Assembly (NCBI RefSeq): GCF_000024025.1
Contig: NC_013131.1
Location: forward strand, 7,978,229-8,042,228
Length of the DNA stretch: 64,000 nt
Direction of reading: 5' to 3'
From: Catenulispora acidiphila DSM 44928
GTDB taxonomy: Bacteria; Actinomycetota; Actinomycetes; Streptomycetales; Catenulisporaceae
The position numbers and the translations under genes are program-made. The notes under the pieces are model-generated. The model saw only the letters and a list, made by a program, of their open reading frames with translations, was not told where the DNA came from and searched no databases. Of this stretch, positions 4,774-26,323 are shown piece by piece (position 1 is the stretch's first letter; every line of letters starts with the position of its first letter).

Positions 4774-6783
4774 ATGCGTCTAACCAGCATCAAGATCAAA
4801 AACTTTCGGCTCCTGGAGGATATCGAGGTCGGAATCGATGAGATCGCGACGCTGATTGTCGGGCGCAACAACAGCGGCAAGACGTCTCTCGTCAACGTGT
4901 TCGACAAGTTCTTCGGGGACGAGGACTGCACCTTCGTGCTCGAAGACTTTCCAGCCGCGCGGATCGCGGACATCAAGCAGGCACACGAATGGTGGGCGAA
5001 GGCCGAACACGAAGAGCCGGCGGATGGTATCGACCCGGAATCCGATCTGCACGCCGCAGCCGTGGGCCTGCTGCCGCAGATGACGCTGCAGCTGACTGTC
5101 ACATACGACGAGAAGGAGAACCTGGCCGCCCTGTCTGGGATGATTCTCGATCTCGACGAAGAGTGCCGCGACGTCGTCATTGAAGCCGTGTTGGAGGCAG
5201 ATCAGCCCGAGAACTTCCTCGCGGAGTACCATACGGCCGCCAGCCACCAGGAATTATTCGTTGAACACCGGTGGCTTCGCTCCAACTTCCTCAAATTCTT
5301 CAAGACGTCCTTTTACGCCGTCTCAGTGCGAGGGAACCCGCCGGCACGAAGGCCGATCAAGAAGTCGGTGATCGACAACGTTCTATCTGTGCAGTTCATC
5401 TACGCACAGAACAAACTCGACGACTCCGGCACGGACCGCACCAGGAATCTTTCCAAGAGCTTCGAAGACTTTCACAGGGCCCACAGCGAGGACGCGGAGA
5501 GGAACCACAACATCGATGGGATCGATGCAGCCCTGCTGACCGCCTCGCAACGGGTGGACAAGAGTTTCGCAGCGCTCTTCACACCCATATTCGACGACTT
5601 GAACCGGTTCGGCGTCGGAAACATCGAGCCGGTCCGAGTACCCAAAGTTGTCACCAAGTTTGACGCCACCTCGGTCTTCCGGGGCAGCACCCGCATCGAG
5701 TACCCCGCCGAGACTGGCGACATGGCGCTGCCCGAGGGCCACCATGGCCTCGGCTACAGCAAGCTGATTTTCACGATCGTGCGGATCGTCGACTTCTACG
5801 AGACTCACCGACGCGCGGTGCCGCGGCCGGCGATTCAACTGCTCTTCATCGAGGAGCCGGAGGCCCATCTTCATCCCCAGATGCAAGAGGCGTTCATCGC
5901 GAACATCCGAGACTTCCTCAGGACCAAAGACGGCTGGAACGTCCAGGTAATCGTCACCACTCATTCACCGCACATCATGATGAAGAGCGGTTTCGAGTGC
6001 GTGAGGTATTTCGATCGATGGGATCCAGGCGCACGAGTACGGGACTTGCAGACGTTTCAGCAGCTCGCCGGAGCCACGACTGACGGCCAGGACGCGCTTC
6101 GATTCCTTCAGCAGTACATGGAGCTTCGCCCGTGCGACATGTTCTTCGCAGACAAGATCATCCTCGTCGAAGGAACCGTCGAACGTCTACTGCTGCCCGA
6201 GATGATCAAACGATGCGCACCCACGCTCGCCCACAAATACCTCTCGGTCATCGAGGTCGGCGGCGCCTACGCACTCAAGTTCAGAGAGCTTCTGAGCTTC
6301 CTCTCGGTCCAGACACTCGTCATCACGGATCTGGACTCGGGAACCCTGGAAGGCCATCACAAAGCATGCGAGCCCAGCACCGCAGGAGCAGTCACGACCA
6401 ACGCGACGTTGAAGAGTTGGCTTCCCGCAGAAAGGGACATCGCCACACTTCTCGAAATCGACGACGCCGCCAAGACTAAAGGACACGTCCGAGTGGCCTA
6501 CCAGGTGCCGGAGCAAAGCGGTGGTCCGGTCGGTCGCAGCTTCGAAGATGCCTTCATCCTCGCCAACGCACACATCTTGGCTGCCGAACTCGCCGGCCTG
6601 TCCACGCGCAAGGCCTTCATCGCAGACACAGACTCCCCCTCGGCGGAGATGATCGCCGAAAGCGCCTACAAGATCGCCGACGGGCTTCACGGCGAGAAGA
6701 CTGGTTTCGCGTTCGACGTCCTCCGCCTCGACGGCTGGAGCGTTCCGCGATACATCGACGAAGGATTGCGGTGGCTGGAGTAG
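4774..6783 (+). CDS. gajA: Gabija protein GajA: OLD-family ATPase/TOPRIM endonuclease
   Basis: 669 aa from the ATG at 4774 (MRLTSIKIKNFRLLEDIEVG), which places the Walker A motif GRNNSGKT at residues 30-37 as expected for an OLD/RecF-type ATPase. Walker B and adjacent residues are LFIEEPEAHLHP (357-367) and the switch histidine is in TTHSPH (395-400). The C-terminal TOPRIM domain keeps its catalytic acids: ILVEGTVE (E466, E470) and VITDLDSG (D519, D521). In Gabija, GajA is a nucleotide-regulated DNA nickase or endonuclease that assembles with the helicase GajB and restricts phage. The next gene overlaps by 13 nt and is a UvrD-like helicase, which makes this a Gabija locus and not a lone OLD gene. 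It is somewhat longer than the roughly 580-aa Bacillus GajA. The upstream 400 bp hold only debris. Confidence 0.92.
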   Translation: MRLTSIKIKNFRLLEDIEVGIDEIATLIVGRNNSGKTSLVNVFDKFFGDEDCTFVLEDFPAARIADIKQAHEWWAKAEHEEPADGIDPESDLHAAAVGLLPQMTLQLTVTYDEKENLAALSGMILDLDEECRDVVIEAVLEADQPENFLAEYHTAASHQELFVEHRWLRSNFLKFFKTSFYAVSVRGNPPARRPIKKSVIDNVLSVQFIYAQNKLDDSGTDRTRNLSKSFEDFHRAHSEDAERNHNIDGIDAALLTASQRVDKSFAALFTPIFDDLNRFGVGNIEPVRVPKVVTKFDATSVFRGSTRIEYPAETGDMALPEGHHGLGYSKLIFTIVRIVDFYETHRRAVPRPAIQLLFIEEPEAHLHPQMQEAFIANIRDFLRTKDGWNVQVIVTTHSPHIMMKSGFECVRYFDRWDPGARVRDLQTFQQLAGATTDGQDALRFLQQYMELRPCDMFFADKIILVEGTVERLLLPEMIKRCAPTLAHKYLSVIEVGGAYALKFRELLSFLSVQTLVITDLDSGTLEGHHKACEPSTAGAVTTNATLKSWLPAERDIATLLEIDDAAKTKGHVRVAYQVPEQSGGPVGRSFEDAFILANAHILAAELAGLSTRKAFIADTDSPSAEMIAESAYKIADGLHGEKTGFAFDVLRLDGWSVPRYIDEGLRWLE

Positions 6784-11425: not shown

Positions 11426-14400
11426 TCACCGGCAAGGCGGAGCGTATGGCGTGTCGGGGACGTAGCGGTTCCACTCGGCGATGCTGATGGGGTCTCCCAC
11501 CGTGGCGCAGATATCATTAATTGTCTGATTTACATCGGTGTTCCAGATTTTGATGGTGTTCTTCGTCCTGCTGCCGGCGACGAGGATCGTGCTTTCGGGA
11601 TCCAGGTCGGCTCCGAAGATCGGGCCGTTGAGCTCGGCGAGGGTCTCCAGGAAGCGGGGTCGGCGGGGATCGGTGACGTCCCACAACCATACGGTGCCCT
11701 CACCCGTGGACGCGGCCAACAGGCCGCCGCCGGAGCCGAAGGCGGCCGCGTAGGTTCCGCTGTTGGGACCGGTCAGAGCGGGGCCGAGTGCGACCGGCTT
11801 GGCCGGGTCGGTGACGTCCCACAGTTGGACGGTCTCATCCGCGCTGCTCGCGGCGAGCACGCGGCCGTTCGGACTGAAGACGACGGCATAAACGTAGTTC
11901 GTGTGCGTGGCCAATGCCGGGCCCAGGGAGACGGCCCGGGCCGGGTCGCTGACGTCCCACAGACGGACGTCGTAGTCGGCGCTGCCGGCGGCCAGCACCC
12001 GGCCGTTGGGGCTGAACGCGAGGGAGAAGACGTAGTTGGTCGGGCCGGTGATGGATGGCAGAGCTATGGGATTTCGCAGATCGGTGATGTTCCAGAGGTG
12101 GATGGTCGCCTCATCGGCGCCGACGGTGATGATGTGTCCGTCGGGGCTGAAGGCGATGGTCTCCACCGGAGTGCTAAGGCCGTTGAGAACAGCTGGTAGG
12201 AGAATGGGATGTCGCGGATCGGTGATGTCCCACAGCCGGACCGTGCCGTCGTTGCTGCCAATGGCAATGGTGTTCCCGTCAGGGCTGGTCTGCACGGTGC
12301 CGGAGAAGGCGGCTTTCCCGGTGGGCGAGGTGATCGCCGGCCCGCGGAGCTTCGGGGTCCGGGGCGTGGACAGGTCCCATAGGGACGCCGTGGCCGTGGA
12401 TCCGACGGCGAGAGTATGGTGCGGGCCCATCACGGTCGAGTAGATCGTGCCCGGGATCGGCTCGATGGTGGGTCCGGGCAGTCGCCACAGGCGGGCGATC
12501 CCGTCGATGTCCCCGGTCGCCAGCGTCGAATTGTCCCGAAGGTAGAACACTGAAGTGACCGCGGCGGGATGCGGCAGTTTGGTGACGAGTTGCCGGGTTC
12601 CCGCGTCCCATAGCCAAACCTGGTCGTCGGAGTCGGCGGCAGCGAGCCGCGTCCCGTCCGGGCTGAAGACCAGGGAGTTGACCCAGCTCCCAGGTCCGGT
12701 CAGCGGCTGGCCTGACGTTGTGGGCCGCGTCGGATCGTTGAGGTTCCACAACTGCACGACTCCGTCGGAACTGCCAACGGCCAAGGTCTGACCGTCCGGA
12801 CCGAAGGCGAGCGAGTACACGACGTGAGCCGTGTCGGTCAGCGGGCCGCCGAGCTCCGTTGGTGAGGTCGGTCCGGTCACCTGCCACAGGCGTACGGTGC
12901 CGTCCCTGCTGCCGGCGGCCAGGACGCGGCCGTTCGGGCTGAAGGCTACCGCCTGCGCGGACTTGCCGAAGCTAACGAGCGGCGGCCCGATCGCCTCTGG
13001 ACGGCTCGGGTCGGCCATGTTCCACAATCGGACGGAGCCGTCGGAGCCAGCGGCGACCAGCAGCCGGCCGTCGGGGCTGAACGCGAGGGAGTAGACGGTG
13101 GCGGTCGTGCCGGTCAGTGGCGGAGGCAGGGCGACGGGCCTGGCCGGATCCGTTGTGTTCCACACCCGGATCACGCCTTGCGCGCCGCCCACGGCCAGGG
13201 TGCGACCGTCCGGACTGAACGCGAGCGAGAACATCGTATACGTGTGGCCAGTCGGCAGATCAACGAGCGGTTTCGGACGGCCCGGATCAGTCAGTCCCCA
13301 CAGCTGCACCAGGCCGCCGGCGCCGGAGGTGGCCATCGTACGCGCGTCGCTGGTGACCGCGACCGATTGCACGACGCTGGCCTTGGTGAAGACGCGTGTC
13401 GCGGCCGGCGTCGACCAGGAGTCGAGCAGGGCGCCGCGGGCGTCGGGCGTCGGCGATATCCGGAAGGCGGCGATGGCCAGCTGTTCGGCGAGCGTGACGT
13501 CGGTGCTCCGCACCTTGCTCGCCTCGATGGCCACCTGGCGAGAGATGGCGGAGTCGCGTTGCCTGGTCGCCTCCGCCTGTTGCTTCGCGGCGACGTTCCT
13601 CTGCTGGAAGGCATAACCGGCGAGCAGCCCGGCTACCGCGACCAACACTGTCAAAGTCGCGACCAGCCTGCGCAGCCGCAGGGTACTGCGACGACGAGCC
13701 TGCCGTTCGGCCTGTTCGGCCCGAACAGCCCTGTCGAGGAAGTCGAGTTCCAACGGATAGAGGTCCAGACGGTGCGTCAGGTCGTCAGCCCACTCCTTCG
13801 CGGCGGCGAGGGCTACGCCGCGGTAGAGCATGTGCGGGTCCCGATCGGCGTCACGCCAGGCCGCCGCCGCGTCTCCGAGTTGCCGGTGAACCCGCAGGCC
13901 GGCCCGGTCGGCGTCGATCCACGCCCGCAGCCGCGGCCAGGCAACCAGCAGTGCCTCGTGCGCGATCTCAACCGTGTCCCGCGAAGAGGTGATCAGCCGG
14001 TTCTCGACGAACGCGTCGAGGACCGGTTGGAGTCCCTCGGCGTCGATCTCGGTGTCCGGGGAGCCGGGCAGCAGGTCGTGCCGTGCGACGCGACGGCGCG
14101 TATCAGCTACCTGATCGGCGACGTGGACGAGGCGCAGAAACAGTTGCCGAGCCAGCGACTGCTGCGCCGGGCTAAGACGTGTGAAGACGTCCTCGGCGCT
14201 TCGCGCGACGGCCCCATGGATGCCGCCGGTCGCACGATACTCATCGGCGGTAAGGAGTCCGTGCCGACGGCGTTCCCAAGTCGCCAGTAACGCGTGACCC
14301 AACAACGGCAGCGCACCGGAGTCGTGCGCGATCACGGACGGATCGGCACCTGGCGGGGCAATCTCCGTGAGGATGAGTTCGACCAGACCCGGTTCGAACG

Positions 14401-15430
14401 CCACACCGGCCGATCTGGCCGGCTCGATGATCGCTCGGCGCAGGTCCTCGCGGGACATCGGAGCAACCACGATTTGCGCTTCTTGCAGAGCCGTGGCCAG
14501 CTGGGAGTGGCGAAGAACCTGCGGATAGAAGTCAGCCCGCAACCCCACCACGACCTGGACTCTGCCGGCCGCCGCCGGTATCGCGCCCTCGTCGTCGACA
14601 GAATGGTTCCGTGCCGCCGAACAAAGCGCGGCGATGAACGCCTCACGCTCGCTCTCGTCGGAGCACGAGGTGAAGACCTCCTCGAACTGGTCGACCACGA
14701 TGACCAGTCCGGGGCCGTCCAGCTCGTCCGTGACAGCACGGGCGAGGCCTCGACACGTCCCAGGATCGGTACGTAGAGCCGCGACGGTATCGGCACCACT
14801 CGTCGCCGACAAGTTCGTGAGGCTCTGAGCCAGCGCGGTCAACGGCCGGTCCCCAGGGGTGAGCAAAACCACCTTCCAGGCGTCATGCTCGTCGTCGGAA
14901 AACGCGCCTCCGGTCAGCGCCGGGATCAGCCCGGCCCGGATCAACGAGGACTTGCCCGAGCCGGACGCGCCGACGACGAGCACCGGGCCGTCGGGCGGCT
15001 CGTCGGCCAGGATCCGGCCGATCAGCAGGTCGGTCAGCGACTCGCGGCCGTAGAACCAGGCGGCGTGCTCGGGTTGGAAGCCAGCCAGTCCGCGATAGGG
15101 GGACTGTGAGCCAGCCGTCGCCCGTTGCCCACTGGCCCGACGTATTCGCCAGAGCGCCCGAACCCACTCCTCGATCTCCGACGGGTCCGAGACACCGCAC
15201 ATCCGGAGAAAATCGGGCAGGAGATCCGGGAACCGCACCGGCGGCAGGTGGCGGCCCGTGAGGTAGCCGCCGATCGTACTGGACGGCAGACCCAATCCCT
15301 TGGCGGCGTCACGGATGGTCAGGCCCGCCGCCTCACGCAGCTCCGTCAGCGCCCGACCGAACTCGGCTCGCGTGGAAATACTCTCCGGCCCGATTTCCCT
15401 CTTACCGGAAATCGCAGTTCCGTCGGACAT
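11426..15430 (-). CDS. HTH-nSTAND NTPase with C-terminal WD40 beta-propellers
   Basis: 1334 aa. Residues 22-75 are an XRE-like HTH (LTELREAAGLTIRDAAKGLG, STIGGYLTGRHLPP). An nSTAND ATPase follows, with Walker A GASGSGKS (154-161) and Walker B LVIVVDQFEEVF near 245, then winged-helix and helical regions. A hydrophobic segment (VATLTVLVAVAGLLAGYAF, near 610) looks membrane-spanning and is followed by a short coiled coil. From about 690 to the end there are around 13-14 WD40 repeats, recognisable as SLAFSPDGRxLAxGSxDGTVRLWD, enough for two propellers. STAND proteins are NTP-driven switches in which the repeat domain senses and the N-terminus signals, and many act in defence or development. A degenerate copy faces it. 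Confidence 0.9.
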   Translation of the reverse strand: MSDGTAISGKREIGPESISTRAEFGRALTELREAAGLTIRDAAKGLGLPSSTIGGYLTGRHLPPVRFPDLLPDFLRMCGVSDPSEIEEWVRALWRIRRASGQRATAGSQSPYRGLAGFQPEHAAWFYGRESLTDLLIGRILADEPPDGPVLVVGASGSGKSSLIRAGLIPALTGGAFSDDEHDAWKVVLLTPGDRPLTALAQSLTNLSATSGADTVAALRTDPGTCRGLARAVTDELDGPGLVIVVDQFEEVFTSCSDESEREAFIAALCSAARNHSVDDEGAIPAAAGRVQVVVGLRADFYPQVLRHSQLATALQEAQIVVAPMSREDLRRAIIEPARSAGVAFEPGLVELILTEIAPPGADPSVIAHDSGALPLLGHALLATWERRRHGLLTADEYRATGGIHGAVARSAEDVFTRLSPAQQSLARQLFLRLVHVADQVADTRRRVARHDLLPGSPDTEIDAEGLQPVLDAFVENRLITSSRDTVEIAHEALLVAWPRLRAWIDADRAGLRVHRQLGDAAAAWRDADRDPHMLYRGVALAAAKEWADDLTHRLDLYPLELDFLDRAVRAEQAERQARRRSTLRLRRLVATLTVLVAVAGLLAGYAFQQRNVAAKQQAEATRQRDSAISRQVAIEASKVRSTDVTLAEQLAIAAFRISPTPDARGALLDSWSTPAATRVFTKASVVQSVAVTSDARTMATSGAGGLVQLWGLTDPGRPKPLVDLPTGHTYTMFSLAFSPDGRTLAVGGAQGVIRVWNTTDPARPVALPPPLTGTTATVYSLAFSPDGRLLVAAGSDGSVRLWNMADPSRPEAIGPPLVSFGKSAQAVAFSPNGRVLAAGSRDGTVRLWQVTGPTSPTELGGPLTDTAHVVYSLAFGPDGQTLAVGSSDGVVQLWNLNDPTRPTTSGQPLTGPGSWVNSLVFSPDGTRLAAADSDDQVWLWDAGTRQLVTKLPHPAAVTSVFYLRDNSTLATGDIDGIARLWRLPGPTIEPIPGTIYSTVMGPHHTLAVGSTATASLWDLSTPRTPKLRGPAITSPTGKAAFSGTVQTSPDGNTIAIGSNDGTVRLWDITDPRHPILLPAVLNGLSTPVETIAFSPDGHIITVGADEATIHLWNITDLRNPIALPSITGPTNYVFSLAFSPNGRVLAAGSADYDVRLWDVSDPARAVSLGPALATHTNYVYAVVFSPNGRVLAASSADETVQLWDVTDPAKPVALGPALTGPNSGTYAAAFGSGGGLLAASTGEGTVWLWDVTDPRRPRFLETLAELNGPIFGADLDPESTILVAGSRTKNTIKIWNTDVNQTINDICATVGDPISIAEWNRYVPDTPYAPPCR

Positions 15431-17971: not shown

Positions 17972-18733
17972 TCAGTGCACCGAAGGTGCTCTACTGATAG
18001 CGCTGTTCAAAACCCAAGTGATCTCATGTGGACCGAGCGACGACTTGTCGACCAGGTCCTTGAAGCACTGACAGTCAAGGAGACGGAGACCGCGGACCGC
18101 GCAGATTGCGATACCAGCAGTGCGGAGGGTGAGCACTGATTGTTGTACATACTGGACAAGCGGGTTCAAGGGTTGCAGGAGCGTGCTGATGGCCGGAATC
18201 TTCTGATCGATCTCGTCAACCCTGCCGAAAGCGGCGTAGCGGGCTTCGATCTCGGCTGCGACGTGGGCGAACTTCTTGCATCGGTTGGCACGCCACCGTG
18301 CTTCAAGTGTCGACCATGCCTTGTCGCCCATCTTCTCGATGAAGTACTCGCGCGCTTGATCGCGCCATCCGGCAGACACGAACGCCTGAACGTGAGCAGC
18401 GGCTTGGGCTGTCGCCACCGTCCGCTGAGCGGCCGCCTGCGCAGCCTTGAAGGCCGGTTCTGCCCGCTGCGATGACGCGGTAGCCTGGCGGGACGAAGCT
18501 GACGACGGGGGCCGCGGCACATACAGCAACGTGGATGGCGCCACATAATGCGAACAGCGCCGGCCTGCGCCGCCATGCTCGTCGCAGCAGAAGCACGCTC
18601 CCCTGACATCGTTCTTGCAGCGGCGGTTTTCCTTCGTCCTGCCCTCGCATTGAAAAACACCCGCACGTATCTCGCGGTGCACGTAGCCGGGTGAGGTGCA
18701 GGTGCGGTTGGACCTCGAATTGCTTGCCATCAT
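17972..18733 (-). CDS. Hypothetical protein with N-terminal Cys/His cluster and Ala-rich helix
   Basis: 253 aa from an ATG at 18733 with AGGA just upstream; the frame stays open to 18844. The N-terminal 70 residues contain a Cys/His-rich patch (FQCEGRTKENRRC, ACFCCDEHGGAGRRCSHY) that could bind zinc. An Ala/Gln-rich helical segment follows (AAQAAAQRTVATAQAAAH) and then a mixed alpha region. No family was recognised and there is no signal peptide. It lies between prophage debris and the CRISPR remnant, so it may be a phage or element cargo gene. Confidence 0.5.
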   Translation of the reverse strand: MMASNSRSNRTCTSPGYVHREIRAGVFQCEGRTKENRRCKNDVRGACFCCDEHGGAGRRCSHYVAPSTLLYVPRPPSSASSRQATASSQRAEPAFKAAQAAAQRTVATAQAAAHVQAFVSAGWRDQAREYFIEKMGDKAWSTLEARWRANRCKKFAHVAAEIEARYAAFGRVDEIDQKIPAISTLLQPLNPLVQYVQQSVLTLRTAGIAICAVRGLRLLDCQCFKDLVDKSSLGPHEITWVLNSAISRAPSVH

Positions 18734-19020
18734 CGTGTCCTGACTCATCCACGGCTGACGTTGAGTGATCAAGAGAGTAGACGAATTGGACTTCTTGCGC
18801 CAATCGATCAATTGACGCAAAAGATATTGCAAAACTGGTGACACGAAGATGAGCCCTAATCTCGACGTGGTTAGGGTCGATGATGCCGCGAGTTACACAG
18901 CCTGAATGATCATTGGCGCGGATACTCCGAGCTTGCGCCGGATCTGGCGCACATACTGACGTTCAAAGGGCGATGTCGTAGAGGGCTGACAGACCTCGGC
19001 TTCAGCAGTACGTCTATGAC

Positions 19021-20360: not shown

Positions 20361-21266
20361 CTAGGGCAACTCGACGTAGGGGAGGCCGACCTGCGAAAGT
20401 TTCGTCTGAAGGTTGATATCGCTGGTCGCCACGAACAGCGTCGACCCGGGGTGGTCCGACTGCACCAGCAGGCTGGAGGCAACGAACCGGTCGTCGGGCA
20501 CATCCAAGTCGAGCCAGGACGGCAACTGGTCGCCCCTGGGCTCGACAACCTCGAACAGAGCATGCACGTCGCCTGCGACCTTGACCCCGAGCAGGACGTC
20601 GCCGTTGGAGCGCAGGTGCTTGAGCCGACGGTCGGCCCGAGCCGCACCGTCGCGCAGGAGCTCGGTGCGTCCGGCGCGCTTGAGGCCGTCGATCTCCCGC
20701 AGCACCACGGGCAGCAGGTGGACCATGTACCGCGGGCCCAACGTCGCAGTGTGCACAGCGACGTCGGGGTTATCGATGAGCGTGTTGGTGTCCACCGTGA
20801 GCCGCACGGCGAACGCGTCGGGCGGCAGCACCTTAACGAGAGCCAGCAGCTCCTCCACGGAGGCATCGATCGCTTGTGCCGCAGCGGTGAGGCTGCCGGG
20901 GATCTTGTCGCGCTTTGGACGGATGAGCCAGCGCGTCAACCGTCCGATGTGTACATCGAGCCGTTCGGCCACCTCTGGCGTGGGGTGCGGGAACAGCAGT
21001 CGGAAGCGTGGCTCCCAGTCGCGCACCTTGCGCAACAGCGCCATCCGCTCCCGGTCGAGGTCCGGATCGCTGCCCGCCCACGCCCACACCACCGGGTTCA
21101 TGAACACGACGAGGCCACTGCTGCGGCCGCGGTTGGGATCAACATTGATGATCTTCGAGGCTGACAATACCTCGCGGTAGTCGGCGTGGATCGCGCCGAG
21201 CTCGGCGCAGAGCCGTTCGATGTATGACGGCGGAGCCGTCGTCGCTTTGGACACTGGATTCTCCAT
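20361..21266 (-). CDS. PIN-domain ribonuclease-like protein linked to CBASS
   Basis: 301 aa from an ATG at 21266 (MENPVSKATT). The N-terminal half is helical with no recognised fold. The C-terminal half is a PIN-like nuclease domain: first acid in RLTVDTNTLIDNPD, second in LPVVLREIDGLKR, third in DVPDDRFVASSLL and fourth in LFVATSDINLQTK. This is the D...E...D...D pattern of Mg-dependent PIN ribonucleases. No antitoxin-sized partner is adjacent; instead it lies about 100 nt after the S-4TM effector gene. It could be a second, RNA-cleaving arm of the CBASS response or an independent toxin. Confidence 0.75.
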   Translation of the reverse strand: MENPVSKATTAPPSYIERLCAELGAIHADYREVLSASKIINVDPNRGRSSGLVVFMNPVVWAWAGSDPDLDRERMALLRKVRDWEPRFRLLFPHPTPEVAERLDVHIGRLTRWLIRPKRDKIPGSLTAAAQAIDASVEELLALVKVLPPDAFAVRLTVDTNTLIDNPDVAVHTATLGPRYMVHLLPVVLREIDGLKRAGRTELLRDGAARADRRLKHLRSNGDVLLGVKVAGDVHALFEVVEPRGDQLPSWLDLDVPDDRFVASSLLVQSDHPGSTLFVATSDINLQTKLSQVGLPYVELP

Positions 21267-21370: not shown

Positions 21371-22291
21371 TCAAGGGCTGTTTTCAGGACAGATGAGTTC
21401 GGCAGTCGCTGTAACGGTGGCGTGCTGGGAGGAGCTGCGGCGAAGCCGGTAGTAGAAGGTTGGCACTCGTGGCCCGGTGCGACGCAGTTGAAACGCGGAG
21501 TCCTGGATCCGACGGGTCTCACCGACCGGGAGATTATCCGGAGCGAGTCGGTACGTATTCCACAACTCGCGGATGTCGTTCTCGGTCTGTTCGCGGGCGA
21601 TGGAGTGCTGGCGGTGCTCGTGGGCCAGTTCGGAGGTGTCCAGGAACGCTGGCGCGCAAGGCAGGAAGATCTTGATCAGATAGTCGGACAGCGACAGGTC
21701 TTTGACCACGGCCAGGACGAGGCCGGCGGTGAACCACCCTAGACCTGCGGCCAGGACCGCGTTGCCGTAGGCGCGGTGGTCACTGCGACTCCAGACCATG
21801 CTCTGTCGTTGGCATAGCAGCACGTCGCCGGGCCATGCGACGCCGGTCAGGTCGATGCTGTACCAGTCGTGGTAGCGCTCGTGGTCGGGAACGCGCTCGG
21901 CCGCCCGGACGATGTCGTCCGGGGACGGCGGACTACCGGCCAGGGATTGGTTCCACGGCAGGTGGAACAGCTTGGTGTCGTACAGCTCGTGCGCGCGCAC
22001 GGCGTCGCCGCGGGCGTGCTGCTCCAGCCGGGTCAGCACGGTGCGACCGATGACCAGCCACCCCGCGCCGACCGCAGCGAGAGTGTCGGTCGAGGACGGC
22101 ACGAACACCGCGACCACTGGGGCAATCAAAGCCAGGGCCAACGTGCCGGCCGCCCGCAGTCGTCGCCACATCTGCGCCGAGTTGTACATGTGGCTGTAGG
22201 CGCGCAGCCGACGAAGGTGTTCGATTTCGTCCTGACGGGTCCTGATATCGGCCCCGGCCCCGACGGGCACGGGGCGGTGCGGGCCGGTCAT
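21371..22291 (-). CDS. S-4TM family membrane effector of CBASS
   Basis: 306 aa from the ATG at 22291, whose ATGA overlaps the CD-NTase stop by 4 nt. The N-terminal stretch RQDEIEHLRRLRAYSHMYNS precedes two hydrophobic helices (about 48-65 and 70-83). The S-4TM signature AHELYDTKLFHLPWN follows (100-114), then a cytosolic segment with WYSIDLTGVAW, and two more helices (about 180-199 and 206-225). A charged C-terminal domain has ENDIRELWNTYR. S-4TM proteins are predicted pore-forming effectors in CBASS: second-messenger binding is thought to open or disrupt the membrane and kill the infected cell. Direct coupling to the CD-NTase supports that role. Confidence 0.85.
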   Translation of the reverse strand: MTGPHRPVPVGAGADIRTRQDEIEHLRRLRAYSHMYNSAQMWRRLRAAGTLALALIAPVVAVFVPSSTDTLAAVGAGWLVIGRTVLTRLEQHARGDAVRAHELYDTKLFHLPWNQSLAGSPPSPDDIVRAAERVPDHERYHDWYSIDLTGVAWPGDVLLCQRQSMVWSRSDHRAYGNAVLAAGLGWFTAGLVLAVVKDLSLSDYLIKIFLPCAPAFLDTSELAHEHRQHSIAREQTENDIRELWNTYRLAPDNLPVGETRRIQDSAFQLRRTGPRVPTFYYRLRRSSSQHATVTATAELICPENSP

Positions 22292-23169
22292 GACTTCGCG
22301 AACAACGAGCCGAAGAGGCGCTGCCACTCGGCCAGTGCCTCGCCGGTGCGGCCAGCCTGGTCATGCTTGATCGCGCGGGTACACGCGGCCTCGGCCTCGC
22401 CGAGCGCCCGGCGAGACACGGCCATCGCCGCCGGATCGTTGTCAAGGACGTCGGAGACGTCCGGGCCCAGCCCGGCCGGGTCCGGCCAGCCCTCGTCGAT
22501 GCGGTCGGCGGCGGTGGCGAAGAAGCCGCGCAGCTCGTACGGATGGCGCCCGGTCCACGGGCCCGAAAGGATGTCGAGGGCCATGACCTCCAACAAAAAG
22601 CCGGGCTGCACCGGCGACCCGCTCTCCTGATTCCACTTCTTGATCATCTTGATGAGCGGCTTCCACTGGTCGGCGAAGTCCTTGTTCGCACGGGTCGCCA
22701 GCTCGGCGTGGATCCGCGGATTTGTGGAGATCCACTCCCCCAGGATGTCATCAGGGATCAGGTAATTGTCGCCGTCGGCGAAGGCGGGGACCACGTCGAA
22801 GGAGATGATCTCGTCGTCCAGGTCTGTGACTCTAGCGACACCGAAGTCGACGCGCACCGCGCGGCGGTCGCTGACCACACGGCCCGGGTAGTAGGGCTCG
22901 AGGATCTGCACGACCTCCTTCAGGATCGCGGCGGGATCGCGGTTTAGGAAGTTCGTGTCCCGGAGGACCACCATGATGTCGATGTCGCGCAGCGGCTTGG
23001 TCTTGGTCTGACGCCGGTAGGAACCGGTCAGGAAGTCCTCGGCGATCTCCAGGTCGCTGGCGAGTTGCTCCCGGATGCGCTGCTGGCGGGCGCTGGCGGT
23101 GGCGTTCTCGCGGTCGGTGGTCTCCAGGCGGGTTCGGAACTTGCCGAACGCGTCCTCGATGCTCATCAT
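22288..23169 (-). CDS. CD-NTase (SMODS domain), CBASS signal synthase
   Basis: 293 aa from the ATG at 23169 (second ATG at 23166), with AGGA 7 nt upstream and overlapping the HORMA stop codon (TGATG). The nucleotidyltransferase active site is complete: FLTGSYRRQTKTKP (G49, S50), DIDIMVVL (D62, D64) and a third acid in ISFDVVPAF (D125). The C-terminal helical domain includes LIKMIKKWNQ and PGFLLEVMAL, typical of OAS-like CD-NTases. The enzyme makes a cyclic di- or trinucleotide on phage infection. Clade and product cannot be told from reading alone. In HORMA/TRIP13 operons this enzyme is switched on by HORMA binding and off by TRIP13. Confidence 0.93.
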   Translation of the reverse strand: MMSIEDAFGKFRTRLETTDRENATASARQQRIREQLASDLEIAEDFLTGSYRRQTKTKPLRDIDIMVVLRDTNFLNRDPAAILKEVVQILEPYYPGRVVSDRRAVRVDFGVARVTDLDDEIISFDVVPAFADGDNYLIPDDILGEWISTNPRIHAELATRANKDFADQWKPLIKMIKKWNQESGSPVQPGFLLEVMALDILSGPWTGRHPYELRGFFATAADRIDEGWPDPAGLGPDVSDVLDNDPAAMAVSRRALGEAEAACTRAIKHDQAGRTGEALAEWQRLFGSLFAKS

Positions 23170-23687
23170 CAGCTGTTCCTGGTGTAGTAGGAGATGCTGG
23201 CGCCGATCGTGCCGCCCGTGATCGCCGTGCCGGCAGTGCGCCGGGTGAGGTGATCGCTGGACCGCAACTGTCCCTTGCCCCAGCCGGGCACAGCAGGCCG
23301 GCCGGGCTTGTTCACGACGGTGAAGTCGTACTCGCACTGCGAGGGGTAGGCCCCGTTCTTGCGGATGACGTAGTCGATCACGTCCGGGTCTAGCCACAGG
23401 TCGCCGTCGGAGTCGGCGCCGTAGTCATATTCGATGGTGAAGTCGAACCGCCCGACCAGGCTCGTCACAGTGCGGTCGCTCGGATCGAACACCTCCATAA
23501 CCAGGGTGGTCAGGTGACCGGACTGCAGCCATGTGCTAACCCCGGACTCCAGGAGCGCCCACTGGCCGAGCAGGCCGGCGGGGTCCAGGCCAGCGGCGCG
23601 GATGATCTGCTTCAGGCTGCGGATCATGTTCGTGGCCACGTGTGTAGCGGCATGCGTGGTCGTGTTAACGCGGACGCTGGTCGCCAT
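23169..23687 (-). CDS. cap7: Bacterial HORMA-domain protein (Cap7-like), CBASS sensor
   Basis: 172 aa. Bacterial HORMA features seen include an N-terminal helix THVATNMIRSLKQIIRAAGL, then WLQSGHLTTLVMEVFDP, DFTIEYDYG, VIDYVIRKNGAYPSQCEYDF and the safety-belt-like tail LTRRTAGTAITGGTIGASIS. In type III CBASS, HORMA proteins bind a closure peptide from a foreign protein, change to the closed state and activate the CD-NTase. Its stop codon overlaps the CD-NTase start, in keeping with complex formation. The gene is 2 nt after the 154-aa unknown gene. Confidence 0.85.
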   Translation of the reverse strand: MATSVRVNTTTHAATHVATNMIRSLKQIIRAAGLDPAGLLGQWALLESGVSTWLQSGHLTTLVMEVFDPSDRTVTSLVGRFDFTIEYDYGADSDGDLWLDPDVIDYVIRKNGAYPSQCEYDFTVVNKPGRPAVPGWGKGQLRSSDHLTRRTAGTAITGGTIGASISYYTRNS

Positions 23688-23689
23688 GG

Positions 23690-24154
23690 CTAGGAAAGCT
23701 CCTCAAGGTTGACGGTCAGCGATCCGCGGACCTGCGGTTCCGCGAACTTGTCGATCTCCGCGACGGCGGTGAGGTCCCGAAGCGAGATCCGCCCGTCCCC
23801 GGCCAGCACACGGCCGAAGTCGTCGATGTCGTCGACACCGCAGGGCACGGACAGCGTCCACTGCGGGTCGGCCAGCGGCTGCACCGACAGCGGCGTCTCG
23901 TCCTGCAGCACCTCTAGGGCGTCTTCGCCGTGCACCGTGTAGATGCGGATCTGCGGGCCGGATGCTGGGCGGATGATGATCGGGGCGTCGCGTGTGTACT
24001 CCTCGGAGATGATTGCCGCGCACACCCCCGTCGCCGCCGACAGCACAGAACGGGCGGGCCCCTGCAGAGGGGCGACCAGGTCGATGATGGCGTGCCAGGT
24101 CGCAGTCGAGGTCCTAGCCGGGACGGAGGCAACGCGCCGGGCTGTCACACTCAC
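23690..24154 (-). CDS. Unknown CBASS-embedded protein, possible divergent HORMA partner
   Basis: 154 aa from a GTG at 24154 that overlaps the TRIP13 stop codon (GTGA), so it is translationally coupled. It does not match a family I can name with certainty. The first 55 residues are helical (TATWHAIIDLVAPLQGPARS, GVCAAIISEEY). The rest alternates strands (IIIRPASGPQIRIYTVHG, TLSVPCGVDDIDDFG, GSLTVNLEEL). Some HORMA/TRIP13 operons encode two HORMA-like proteins, and this position and size would suit a divergent second HORMA or an adaptor that supplies a closure peptide. That role is inference. Confidence 0.6.
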   Translation of the reverse strand: MSVTARRVASVPARTSTATWHAIIDLVAPLQGPARSVLSAATGVCAAIISEEYTRDAPIIIRPASGPQIRIYTVHGEDALEVLQDETPLSVQPLADPQWTLSVPCGVDDIDDFGRVLAGDGRISLRDLTAVAEIDKFAEPQVRGSLTVNLEELS

Positions 24155-25065
24155 CGCTCCACCCGCATCGCCTGCAGCGCGGCGAGCAGGTCCTCGCCGG
24201 TGACGTTCTCCGGATCGCCGAGCGCCTCGGGCCGCCAGGCGCAGGCCGAAGCCACCGCCTTGCGCAACCTGCGCCCGTCAATCCCCTCCGACAACTGCGC
24301 GGCCGCGTCCAGCACGGTCGGATCGCACAAGGACTGCGCCCCGGGAAAGGCCGCCGCCACCGCCGCGGCCGTACTCTCCAAGATCCGCCGCCGCAGGACA
24401 GCGTCCGGAAGCGGAATCTGAAAGACCGCGTCGGCACGGGAGGTCAGAGCCGGATCGATCCCCCCTGGGAAGTTGCTGGTCGCGATGACCAACACATCGG
24501 GGTGCTGCTGGGCCAGCCGGTCGATCCCGACCAGCGCGGCATCGACCGCACGGTGGACGTCGATCGGGTTGGCCTCCATCGACAGCGCGGAGCGGTCAGC
24601 CGCCAAGGTCTCGACCTCGTCCAGCAGCACCACCAGCGGCCCGTCCGCAGCAGCCTCGGACAGCGTCTGCCCGAACAACTGCTCCACCGCGCGCTGGCTG
24701 CGGCCCAGCGCGGAGCCGGCCAGCGCGTGCGGGTCGACCTCGATGAATGCCCAGTCGCCGATGCCGTGCAGCGTCCGGGCCGTCTTGTCCGCCAGGCCGC
24801 GGGCGACCGTCGTCTTGCCCACCCCCGGCACCCCGGTCAACAACACCACGCCGTGCAGCGGCATCGTCTCGAACGGCACCGTCCGGCGCAGCCGGAACTT
24901 GGCGATCACCGTACGCAGCAGGCGCTCCTTCACACCTTCCGGAAACTCGATGCTCGCCCACGCATCGGCGAACTGCCGGTCCGGAAGCGTCCGGGCGTCG
25001 GCGACACCCGGCAACGCGACGTCGGGCAGCGCCCGGCTCGACGCGGAAGATGTGCGGCTGGTCAT
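24151..25065 (-). CDS. cap6: TRIP13/Pch2-like AAA+ ATPase (Cap6-like) of CBASS
   Basis: 304 aa. AAA+ motifs are complete: Walker A GVPGVGKT (78-85), Walker B VVLLDE (145-150), sensor 1 in IATSNF (N198) and an arginine finger in LTSRADAVF (R210). The small domain ends IDGRRLRKAVASA, the sensor-2 region. It has the size and layout of bacterial TRIP13, which unfolds the N-terminus of closed HORMA proteins, resetting the sensor and damping CBASS. AAGGTG lies 5 nt before the ATG. It is the first gene of the operon and is transcribed divergently from the XRE regulator. Confidence 0.9.
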   Translation of the reverse strand: MTSRTSSASSRALPDVALPGVADARTLPDRQFADAWASIEFPEGVKERLLRTVIAKFRLRRTVPFETMPLHGVVLLTGVPGVGKTTVARGLADKTARTLHGIGDWAFIEVDPHALAGSALGRSQRAVEQLFGQTLSEAAADGPLVVLLDEVETLAADRSALSMEANPIDVHRAVDAALVGIDRLAQQHPDVLVIATSNFPGGIDPALTSRADAVFQIPLPDAVLRRRILESTAAAVAAAFPGAQSLCDPTVLDAAAQLSEGIDGRRLRKAVASACAWRPEALGDPENVTGEDLLAALQAMRVER

Positions 25066-25268: not shown

Positions 25269-25751
25269 GTGGACGACCCAGTGGACATCTCAGCGCTGCA
25301 GCGGCTCGTACAGCGCCATCGTGCTGAGCGCGGACTGAGTCTCCGCGCAGCGGCCGAAGAATCCGAAGTGCCTTTCAACACGCTCGCCCGCGTCGAGAAG
25401 GGACACTTGCCCGACCTCGCCAACTTCCGACGCATCGTCGAGTGGTTGGGCCTGCCCCCGGAGCGGTTCTTCGAGCCGCCGCGCGTACGTACCGAGAGCA
25501 CTCCGGAGCTCATCGCTTACCACCTCGCGCGCGACCCGAATCTCTCCGACGCCGCCGCGGGACGGATCGCGGCCCTTGTGCGCGACCTTTACGACACCAT
25601 GGCCGAGCCGGCTGGCGCCGTCCAGGTTCACCTGCGAGCGGCCAGTACCTTCACCCCGCAGGCCGCTCGCGCGCTGGGCGAGCTGCTGGAAACCATCCAA
25701 GCCAAACTCGAGTCACGCTCTGGCGGCGCCCCTTCGGCCGAGGACAGGTAG
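25269..25751 (+). CDS. XRE-family regulator (CapH-like), partner of the ImmA/IrrE protease
   Basis: 160 aa from a GTG at 25269 with AAGGGAGA upstream. Residues about 9-62 are an XRE HTH: LVQRHRAERGLSLRAAAEES then TLARVEKGHLPDLANFRRIV. A helical C-terminal region with VRDLYDTMAE may form a dimer or be the cleavage target. It is divergent from a CBASS operon and directly followed by a metallopeptidase gene, exactly the arrangement of CapH/CapP, where the HTH protein represses CBASS and is cleaved by the protease after DNA damage. By that analogy it would be the CBASS repressor. Confidence 0.8.
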   Translation: MDDPVDISALQRLVQRHRAERGLSLRAAAEESEVPFNTLARVEKGHLPDLANFRRIVEWLGLPPERFFEPPRVRTESTPELIAYHLARDPNLSDAAAGRIAALVRDLYDTMAEPAGAVQVHLRAASTFTPQAARALGELLETIQAKLESRSGGAPSAEDR

Positions 25752-25759
25752 GACCGACC

Positions 25760-26323
25760 GTGCGAAGAGGTTTCAAAACCGAGGCCGAGCGCCTGGCCGA
25801 ACGGCAGCGCGCACAGCTTGGCCTCCAGCCCGTCGATCCCCTGAAGATCTTCGATCTTGCTGAGAACCTCGGAGTCCGGGTGTACAGCGCCAGCGACCTA
25901 GTGGATCGCTCAGCCCTGGAAGAACTTGAACGACTCCAACCAGGAGCATTCTCCGCAGCCACCTTCAACATGCCCGACGGCGACACCGTCGCCGTATACA
26001 ACCCCCTCAGCGAGCCGGGACGCACCAACAGCGACATCGCTCACGAACTCGCCCACATCCTCCTCGGCCACCGACTGCGCGACCTCCAAAAAATCGGAGG
26101 AAACACCTTCTTCGCATGCGATCCCGAGCAGGAGGAGGAAGCGAACTGGCTTGCCGGCTGTCTGCTCCTACCTCGGCCACTATTACTTCGCGAGGCTTAC
26201 GCCAAGGCAACCCCAGAAGCCATTGCCCACAAGTATCACGTAAGCATTTCAATGGCTCGCTTCAGGCTCAATGCCAGCGGCGTCATGATGCAAGCACGCA
26301 GATCCCCGCAAAGGCGCCCATAG
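25760..26323 (+). CDS. ImmA/IrrE-type metallopeptidase (CapP-like)
   Basis: 187 aa from a GTG at 25760, 8 nt after the regulator stop. The zinc-binding motif is HELAH (95-99) within SDIAHELAHILLGH. A third ligand is likely in EQEEEANWLAGCLLLP, the ExxxN segment of ImmA/IrrE peptidases. These enzymes cleave an adjacent XRE repressor to derepress target genes; in CapP the activity responds to single-stranded DNA. The strict pairing with the XRE gene and the position beside CBASS support that function. A strong hairpin lies 70 nt downstream. Confidence 0.88.
   Translation: MRRGFKTEAERLAERQRAQLGLQPVDPLKIFDLAENLGVRVYSASDLVDRSALEELERLQPGAFSAATFNMPDGDTVAVYNPLSEPGRTNSDIAHELAHILLGHRLRDLQKIGGNTFFACDPEQEEEANWLAGCLLLPRPLLLREAYAKATPEAIAHKYHVSISMARFRLNASGVMMQARRSPQRRP

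What the first reader, a model, noticed from the sequence alone, without database searches (positions are those of the whole stretch)
23690..24154. Unrecognised 154-aa protein translationally coupled between TRIP13 and HORMA
Its GTGA overlap with TRIP13 and 2-nt gap to HORMA indicate stoichiometric expression, yet the sequence shows no clear known fold. It could be a second, divergent HORMA, a closure-peptide donor or a sensor adaptor.
Basis: inference. Interest (0 to 1): 0.65.

Follow-up and report, generated by a model that had tools for sequence, protein, structure and literature searches.

The report
Second HORMA protein of a CBASS
The unrecognised small protein is a known kind: the second, divergent HORMA protein of a bacterial anti-phage alarm system, and it carries a conserved tail that its neighbouring HORMA protein probably grips.

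Summary
The ORF is real: 23690-24154, minus strand, 154 aa, GTG start inside a GTGA overlap with TRIP13, 2 nt before the next HORMA gene. It is not an unknown fold. It matches the solved Pseudomonas aeruginosa ATCC 27853 HORMA protein 6P8P (phmmer E=1.6e-15; family profile 2.9e-63) and PADLOC HORMA model PDLC00881 (1.4e-28). No Pfam or NCBIfam model hits it. Around it lies a complete type III, two-HORMA CBASS: TRIP13, this protein ("HORMA3"), HORMA2 (PF18173), CD-NTase and an S_4TM membrane effector, with a divergent HTH plus M78-peptidase pair resembling CapH/CapP. All 18 other loci examined hold TRIP13, HORMA2 and CD-NTase. Among 394 genomes of its class, HORMA3 and HORMA2 occur in the same 4, its own included. 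The C-terminus is a variable linker, then a short motif, [ILV][ND]xxx[ILVFM], in 19 of 19 members. That fits a built-in closure motif for HORMA2; function is inferred, not shown. New member of a known kind; low interest.

The parts
23690..24154 (-). HORMA3 (second HORMA protein), 154 aa, GTG start; HORMA core about residues 1-130, variable linker 131-144, C-terminal motif region 145-154 (VNLEEL); boundaries drawn by eye from the alignment
   Evidence: 6p8p_A E=1.6e-15, 6p8s_C 2.4e-15; family profile 2.9e-63; PDLC00881 1.4e-28; tail conservation
23169..23687 (-). HORMA2, 172 aa
   Evidence: PF18173 bacHORMA_2 E=6.5e-80; 6p8r_A 6.2e-33 and 6p8s_A 9.5e-33; PDLC00882 2.3e-66
24151..25065 (-). TRIP13/Pch2-like AAA+ ATPase, 304 aa; Walker A GVPGVGKTT and Walker B VVLLDE readable in the sequence
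   Evidence: PDLC00915 TRIP13 E=1.8e-120; PF00004 3.2e-20; best PDB hit 4xgu putative pachytene checkpoint protein 2, 1.4e-24
22288..23169 (-). CD-NTase (CBASS oligonucleotide cyclase), 293 aa; GSYRR...DID nucleotidyltransferase signature readable in the sequence
   Evidence: NF041117 E=2.2e-95, over cut-off; 6p8u_A 7.2e-74 and 6p82_A 2e-73; PF18144 1e-19; PDLC00809 6.4e-119
21371..22291 (-). S_4TM membrane effector, 306 aa
   Evidence: PF18159 E=1.7e-94; PDLC00722 4TM effector 4.9e-58
25269..25751 (+). HTH regulator, divergent from the operon, CapH-like by position
   Evidence: PF01381 HTH_3 E=3.1e-6; homologues in the same place in L002 and L003
25760..26323 (+). ImmA/IrrE (M78) metallopeptidase with HELAH, CapP-like; start at 25760 inferred from where homology begins
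   Evidence: PF06114 E=8e-17; 64.5% and 66.5% identical homologues in L002 and L003

Best explanation
The protein is the second HORMA protein (by my inference the HORMA3 of a review, and 'HORMA1' in the PDB titles of the P. aeruginosa structures) of a type III, two-HORMA CBASS anti-phage operon. Shown by homology here: the protein family and the complete operon. Inferred: a HORMA core followed by a flexible linker and a C-terminal closure motif that HORMA2 wraps; closed HORMA2 activates the CD-NTase, whose cyclic oligonucleotide triggers the S_4TM membrane effector and abortive infection; TRIP13 takes the HORMA2 complex apart and switches it off. The divergent HTH/M78-peptidase pair probably represses the operon until DNA damage. 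The confidence given is for identity and system; for the closure-motif step alone it is about 0.7.
For: Sequence and profile match to 6P8P and 6P8S chain C; Foldseek finds the same entries first, although on a low-confidence model. 6P8S is titled a 'HORMA1:HORMA2:Peptide 1 complex', and the 6p8s_A HORMA sequence also occurs in entry 6p8u, whose chain A is the nucleotidyltransferase closest to the window's CD-NTase: relatives of three of the five proteins have been solved together. PADLOC HORMA, TRIP13, cyclase and 4TM effector models hit all five operon genes. The same neighbours in 18 of 18 other loci. HORMA3 and HORMA2 in the same 4 of 394 genomes, the window's own included. Tail motif in 19 of 19, in each of the 7 groups that the first 17 form at 50% identity, against about 7% per shuffled tail and 3 of 17 cores having it anywhere. 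Mean residue-class entropy 1.05 core, 1.91 linker, 1.09 tail. 'Type III (2-HORMA)' is a published category (legend passage of PMC9122588).
Against: No binding, activation or phage test. The HORMA3 and HORMA2 profiles do not align to each other (hhalign E=0.68), so HORMA ancestry rests on the solved relatives. The model has mean pLDDT 47. The motif is short and was chosen after seeing the first 17 tails and the DNA of L018; the only tail not seen beforehand was L019. Nine of the 17 fall in one group. The motif also occurs in 4 of 17 HORMA2 tails, all of that same group, more than shuffles give (mean 0.3, maximum 3), so it is not unique to HORMA3. An earlier, different motif matched 14 of 17. 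I could not read the primary paper.
Confidence: 0.95

Rival explanations
1. HORMA3 is mainly a p31comet-like adaptor: it presents HORMA2 to TRIP13 for disassembly, and the tail is a tether rather than an activating closure motif.
For: TRIP13, HORMA3 and HORMA2 are consecutive and tightly packed here, and all three lie in each of the 18 other loci. In eukaryotes p31comet mediates TRIP13-dependent disassembly of Mad2- and Rev7-containing complexes (start of the abstract of PMC10721328, listing) and mimics the shape of Mad2 (start of the abstract of PMC13299185, listing).
Against: No TRIP13-binding evidence here. This role and the closure-motif role do not exclude each other.
Confidence: 0.3
2. 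The HORMA3 tail is an inhibitory or decoy closure motif that occupies HORMA2 until a phage peptide displaces it.
For: A built-in, co-encoded motif could keep HORMA2 occupied in uninfected cells; motif in 19 of 19. A review says systems with HORMA2 and HORMA3 differ from HORMA1 ones in not needing dsDNA (passage, PMC10419184).
Against: Nothing here separates an activating from an inhibitory motif.
Confidence: 0.25
3. An unrelated small protein that only happens to sit in the operon, an uncharacterised sensor of no HORMA ancestry.
For: No Pfam or NCBIfam match; no profile match to HORMA2.
Against: Nearly full-length profile match to 6P8P at E=2.9e-63 and a PADLOC HORMA match over residues 1-153.
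Confidence: 0.01

Closest known systems
P. aeruginosa ATCC 27853 HORMA protein of PDB 6P8P and 6P8S ('HORMA1' in the PDB titles; by my inference the HORMA3 of the review)
   Same: Homologous over residues 3-129 and over nearly the whole profile including the tail. The neighbouring genes also find their relatives of the same set: HORMA2 finds 6p8r_A and 6p8s_A, the CD-NTase finds 6p8u_A, and the 6p8s_A sequence is itself in 6p8u.
   Different: 31-32% identical in the Foldseek alignments. Here the effector is S_4TM, whereas the P. aeruginosa system uses the endonuclease NucC (recalled).
Two-HORMA type III CBASS on plasmids of Alphaproteobacteria and Polaromonas (L007-L017)
   Same: AAA ATPase, HORMA3, HORMA2, cyclase and one more gene in the same order in the 9 annotated records of 11; L010 and L016 have no annotation but hold the four shared genes by tblastn.
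   Different: The gene after the cyclase is annotated as DUF6602 in 7 and SAVED in 2 of those 9, instead of S_4TM.
Micromonosporaceae loci L002 and L003; Rhodococcus opacus plasmid locus L019
   Same: L002 and L003 are the closest relatives found (50% and 45%) and have the same HTH/M78 pair; L003 and L019 also have an S_4TM effector.
   Different: L003 has a second CD-NTase downstream; the L002 contig ends inside the cyclase; L019 has no match to the window's HTH/M78 pair.
Eukaryotic HORMA proteins with TRIP13 (Mad2, p31comet, meiotic HORMADs)
   Same: HORMA plus TRIP13 remodelling logic (established knowledge).
   Different: No match of HORMA3 to them among PDB chains at E up to 10 or to Pfam HORMA PF02301 at E up to 1.

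Membership tests
Type III two-HORMA CBASS | CD-NTase cyclase in the operon | tested here: met
   NF041117 over cut-off and 6p8u E=7.2e-74
Type III two-HORMA CBASS | TRIP13-like AAA+ ATPase | tested here: met
   PDLC00915 E=1.8e-120; Walker A and B readable in the sequence. Pfam AAA_lid_TRIP13_C is only weak, E=0.12, below cut-off
Type III two-HORMA CBASS | Two HORMA proteins | tested here: met
   HORMA2 PF18173 6.5e-80; HORMA3 PDLC00881 1.4e-28 and 6p8p
Type III two-HORMA CBASS | Effector gene | tested here: met
   S_4TM PF18159 1.7e-94, PADLOC 4TM effector
Type III two-HORMA CBASS | HORMA-dependent cyclase activation, TRIP13 shut-off, phage protection | not testable with these tools
   needs biochemistry and plaque assays
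HORMA3 (6P8P-like) family | Sequence homology to the solved member over the HORMA core | tested here: met
HORMA3 (6P8P-like) family | HORMA fold in this protein itself | tested here: inconclusive
   own model has mean pLDDT 47; Foldseek still ranks 6p8s_C and three 6p8p chains first at E 3.8e-7 to 1.7e-6, TM about 0.55, a score that uses sequence too
HORMA3 (6P8P-like) family | C-terminal closure motif bound by HORMA2 | tested here: inconclusive
   motif in 19 of 19, but also in 4 of 17 HORMA2 tails; binding not tested; that this defines the family is inference
bacHORMA_2 (PF18173) or HORMA (PF02301) | Pfam model match of the 154-aa protein | tested here: not met
   0 Pfam families at E up to 1
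CapH/CapP regulator pair (divergent genes) | HTH repressor plus peptidase next to a CBASS promoter | tested here: met
   HTH and M78 domains, divergent from the operon; CapH/CapP described in passages of PMC13373217; that CapP is an M78 peptidase is recalled
CapH/CapP regulator pair (divergent genes) | ssDNA-activated cleavage of the HTH repressor | not testable with these tools
   needs biochemistry

The most novel reading that the evidence does not exclude
HORMA3 is a dedicated bacterial p31comet-like partner: its tail serves as HORMA2's resident closure motif and its core docks TRIP13, so that infection is sensed when a phage peptide or loss of TRIP13 activity shifts HORMA2 from HORMA3 to the CD-NTase.
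Probability: 0.2. Interest if true: 0.45.

Novelty: new member of a known kind. Interest (0 to 1): 0.2.

Why it matters
It settles a 'no known fold' protein as a known CBASS part and shows an annotation gap: the 10 annotated relatives in plasmid records are all called hypothetical proteins, and neither Pfam nor NCBIfam matches the window protein. The conserved C-terminal motif gives a simple, testable handle on why type III systems with two HORMAs need the second one.

Tried and rejected
Rejected: an unrelated or housekeeping fold; a core gene inherited within the genus (the PADLOC profile finds it in 1 of 99 relatives searched, the window's own genome, and not in 9 other same-genus and 4 same-family genomes, some of them incomplete). 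No sign of phage carriage: 0 matches in 50,697 phage records and no relative in viral contigs with two queries, the latter a scan for short exact peptides that misses distant relatives. Led nowhere: profile alignment of HORMA3 against HORMA2; structure prediction from 3 sequences (mean pLDDT 47); a search with the 17-row profile gave one extra borderline genome, G353, at E=0.001 over profile positions 34-123, with no bacHORMA_2 match in that genome, probably chance. First motif tried, [ILVFAM]x[ILVFA][ND] in the last 18 residues, matched 14 of 17 tails (shuffles: mean 3.9, maximum 10) and 1 of 17 HORMA2 tails (shuffle mean 1.1); I then used [ILV][ND]xxx[ILVFM] in the last 22 residues. That motif also appears in 81 of 2092 core stretches of 22 residues and in 4 of 17 HORMA2 tails, all from one group of close relatives. 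Not run: a HORMA2-HORMA3 or TRIP13 complex prediction, because the tool takes one chain.

Papers: Ye 2020 (Mol Cell) and Burroughs 2015 (NAR) are not held; what I say of NucC, and that the PDB 'HORMA1' is the HORMA3 of the review, is recall or inference. Of PMC9122588, PMC10419184 and PMC13373217 I saw passages only; of PMC10721328 and PMC13299185 only the start of the abstract in a listing.

Full report
Observation. The junctions are as described: the GTG start overlaps the TGA stop of the upstream TRIP13 gene in GTGA, and TAG-CC-ATG leaves 2 nt before the next gene. Homologues in L002 and L003 start with M at the same aligned residue, which supports the GTG start.

Identity. A single-sequence search of PDB chains gives 6p8p_A (E=1.6e-15) and 6p8s_C (2.4e-15, molecule name HORMA1); the third and last hit is noise at 1.5. 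A profile of 17 relatives gives 6p8p_A at 2.9e-63, covering profile positions 2-155 of 156, tail included. PADLOC calls it HORMA (PDLC00881, 1.4e-28, residues 1-153). Pfam and NCBIfam give no family at E up to 1, which may be why it looks unrecognised. A structure prediction from three sequences has low confidence (mean pLDDT 47), yet Foldseek ranks 6p8s_C and three 6p8p chains first (E 3.8e-7 to 1.7e-6, TM-score about 0.55), and the next hit has E=0.81. I rest the identity on the sequence searches, not on that model.

Operon. Order on the minus strand: TRIP13-like ATPase 24151-25065, HORMA3 23690-24154, HORMA2 23169-23687 (PF18173, 6.5e-80), CD-NTase 22288-23169 (NF041117 over cut-off; 6p8u 7.2e-74), S_4TM effector 21371-22291 (PF18159, 1.7e-94). 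Divergent from it lie an HTH protein (25269-25751) and an M78 peptidase with HELAH (25760-26323; PF06114 8e-17). They resemble CapH+CapP, described as a repressor and an ssDNA-activated protease that cleaves it (passages of PMC13373217). 'Type III (2-HORMA)' is a category in a published figure legend (passage of PMC9122588); a review mentions CBASS operons with HORMA2 and HORMA3 (passage of PMC10419184).

Conservation. I examined 18 loci besides the window's own (L002-L019); L020-L027 were fetched later and not used in these counts. TRIP13 and CD-NTase matches lie in all 18. HORMA2 was found in 16 of 16 by phmmer (L002-L017) and in L018 and L019 by tblastn. By tblastn with the window's own HORMA3 as query, 14 of the 18 give a match; L004, L005, L006 and L019 do not. 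L004-L006 came from the PADLOC profile and match the window protein weakly by phmmer (E 2.9e-7 to 2.5e-4); L019 came from a search with a relative. The 10 plasmid records with annotation (9, one) all show an AAA ATPase, a 'hypothetical protein' in the HORMA3 place, the second HORMA (named so in some records, hypothetical in others), the CBASS cyclase, and then a gene annotated as DUF6602 (7), SAVED (2) or S-4TM (1). In 394 genomes of the window's class, HORMA3 (PDLC00881) and HORMA2 (PF18173) occur in the same 4, the window's own and three others, at adjacent positions. The 17-row profile adds one weak hit (G353, E=0.001). In 396 genomes drawn from the phylum it finds the window's own and one other, L018. 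The system is accessory: 1 of 99 relatives, the window's own genome, has a match.

Tail. In the 17 tails the mean residue-class entropy is 1.05 in the core (1-130), 1.91 in the linker (131-144) and 1.09 in the tail (145-154); I set these bounds after seeing the alignment. Positions 146, 148, 149 and 153 never leave their residue class. The motif [ILV][ND]xxx[ILVFM] is found in the last 22 residues of 19 of 19 members, and shuffled tails have it in 7.2% of cases. The motif was chosen after I had seen 17 tails and the DNA of L018, so only L019 was unseen. Relatedness makes the 19 not independent: the first 17 form 7 groups at 50% identity, one of them with nine members, and the motif is in all 7. 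Three of 17 HORMA3 cores have it anywhere. Against specificity: 4 of 17 HORMA2 tails have it too, all from that large group (shuffle mean 0.3, maximum 3). With the first, different pattern HORMA2 tails showed no excess (1 of 17, shuffle mean 1.1). The aligned 6p8p tail also fits, but it is close to L016. The library copies of 6p8p hold 130-132 residues of a 156-residue chain, and the 6p8s_C construct is 133 residues long, as expected if the tail is flexible when unbound; that reading is inference.

Mechanism. Best reading: HORMA3 is a HORMA core with a tethered closure motif for HORMA2. HORMA-peptide binding regulates the CD-NTase, and TRIP13 takes the active complex apart (general type III model, passages). 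The title of 6P8S, 'HORMA1:HORMA2:Peptide 1 complex', shows that the P. aeruginosa pair has been solved as a complex, and the HORMA sequence of 6p8s_A recurs in 6p8u beside the nucleotidyltransferase. Whether the tail activates, inhibits or recruits TRIP13 is open; the rivals are listed with tests. The confidence of 0.95 applies to the identity and the system; for the closure-motif step I would say 0.7.

Verdict. A new member of a known kind, probably in an actinomycete: no call names the genome, but the closest relatives are Micromonosporaceae, and its 10,467,782 bases in one contig agree with my recollection of the size of Catenulispora acidiphila.

Noticed in passing
L003:6251-7240: A second CD-NTase, 32% identical to the window's, directly follows the S_4TM effector in this Micromonosporaceae locus: a two-cyclase CBASS arrangement.
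   Followed up: partly
window 25269-26323 (+): Divergent HTH plus M78 (HELAH) peptidase pair, CapH/CapP-like, 64-70% identical in L002 and L003.
   Followed up: yes
window 20361-21266 (-): PIN-domain protein (PF13638, 6.4e-9) 104 nt downstream of the effector gene; no tblastn match in L001-L019, several of which are too short to reach that far. Two records annotate other PIN proteins nearby (L015; L019).
   Followed up: partly
window 11426-15430 (-): 1334-aa protein with nSTAND1 NTPase and WD40 repeats, a possible signalling or defence protein in the same region.
   Followed up: no
window 17972-18844 (-): 290-aa ORF with no Pfam match at E up to 0.1.
   Followed up: no
L019:6001-6483: In Rhodococcus opacus pLPS8 the HORMA3 gene is annotated from 6181, but the open frame with homology starts at 6001: probably a wrong start in the record.
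   Followed up: partly
window 23169-23687 (-) and relatives in L010, L013, L015, L017: The HORMA3 tail motif also occurs in the last 22 residues of HORMA2 in these four related loci, not in the window's HORMA2; cause not examined.
   Followed up: no
G353:C5:171446-171730 (L027): Borderline HORMA3-profile match (E=0.001) in a genome without a bacHORMA_2 match; probably chance.
   Followed up: no
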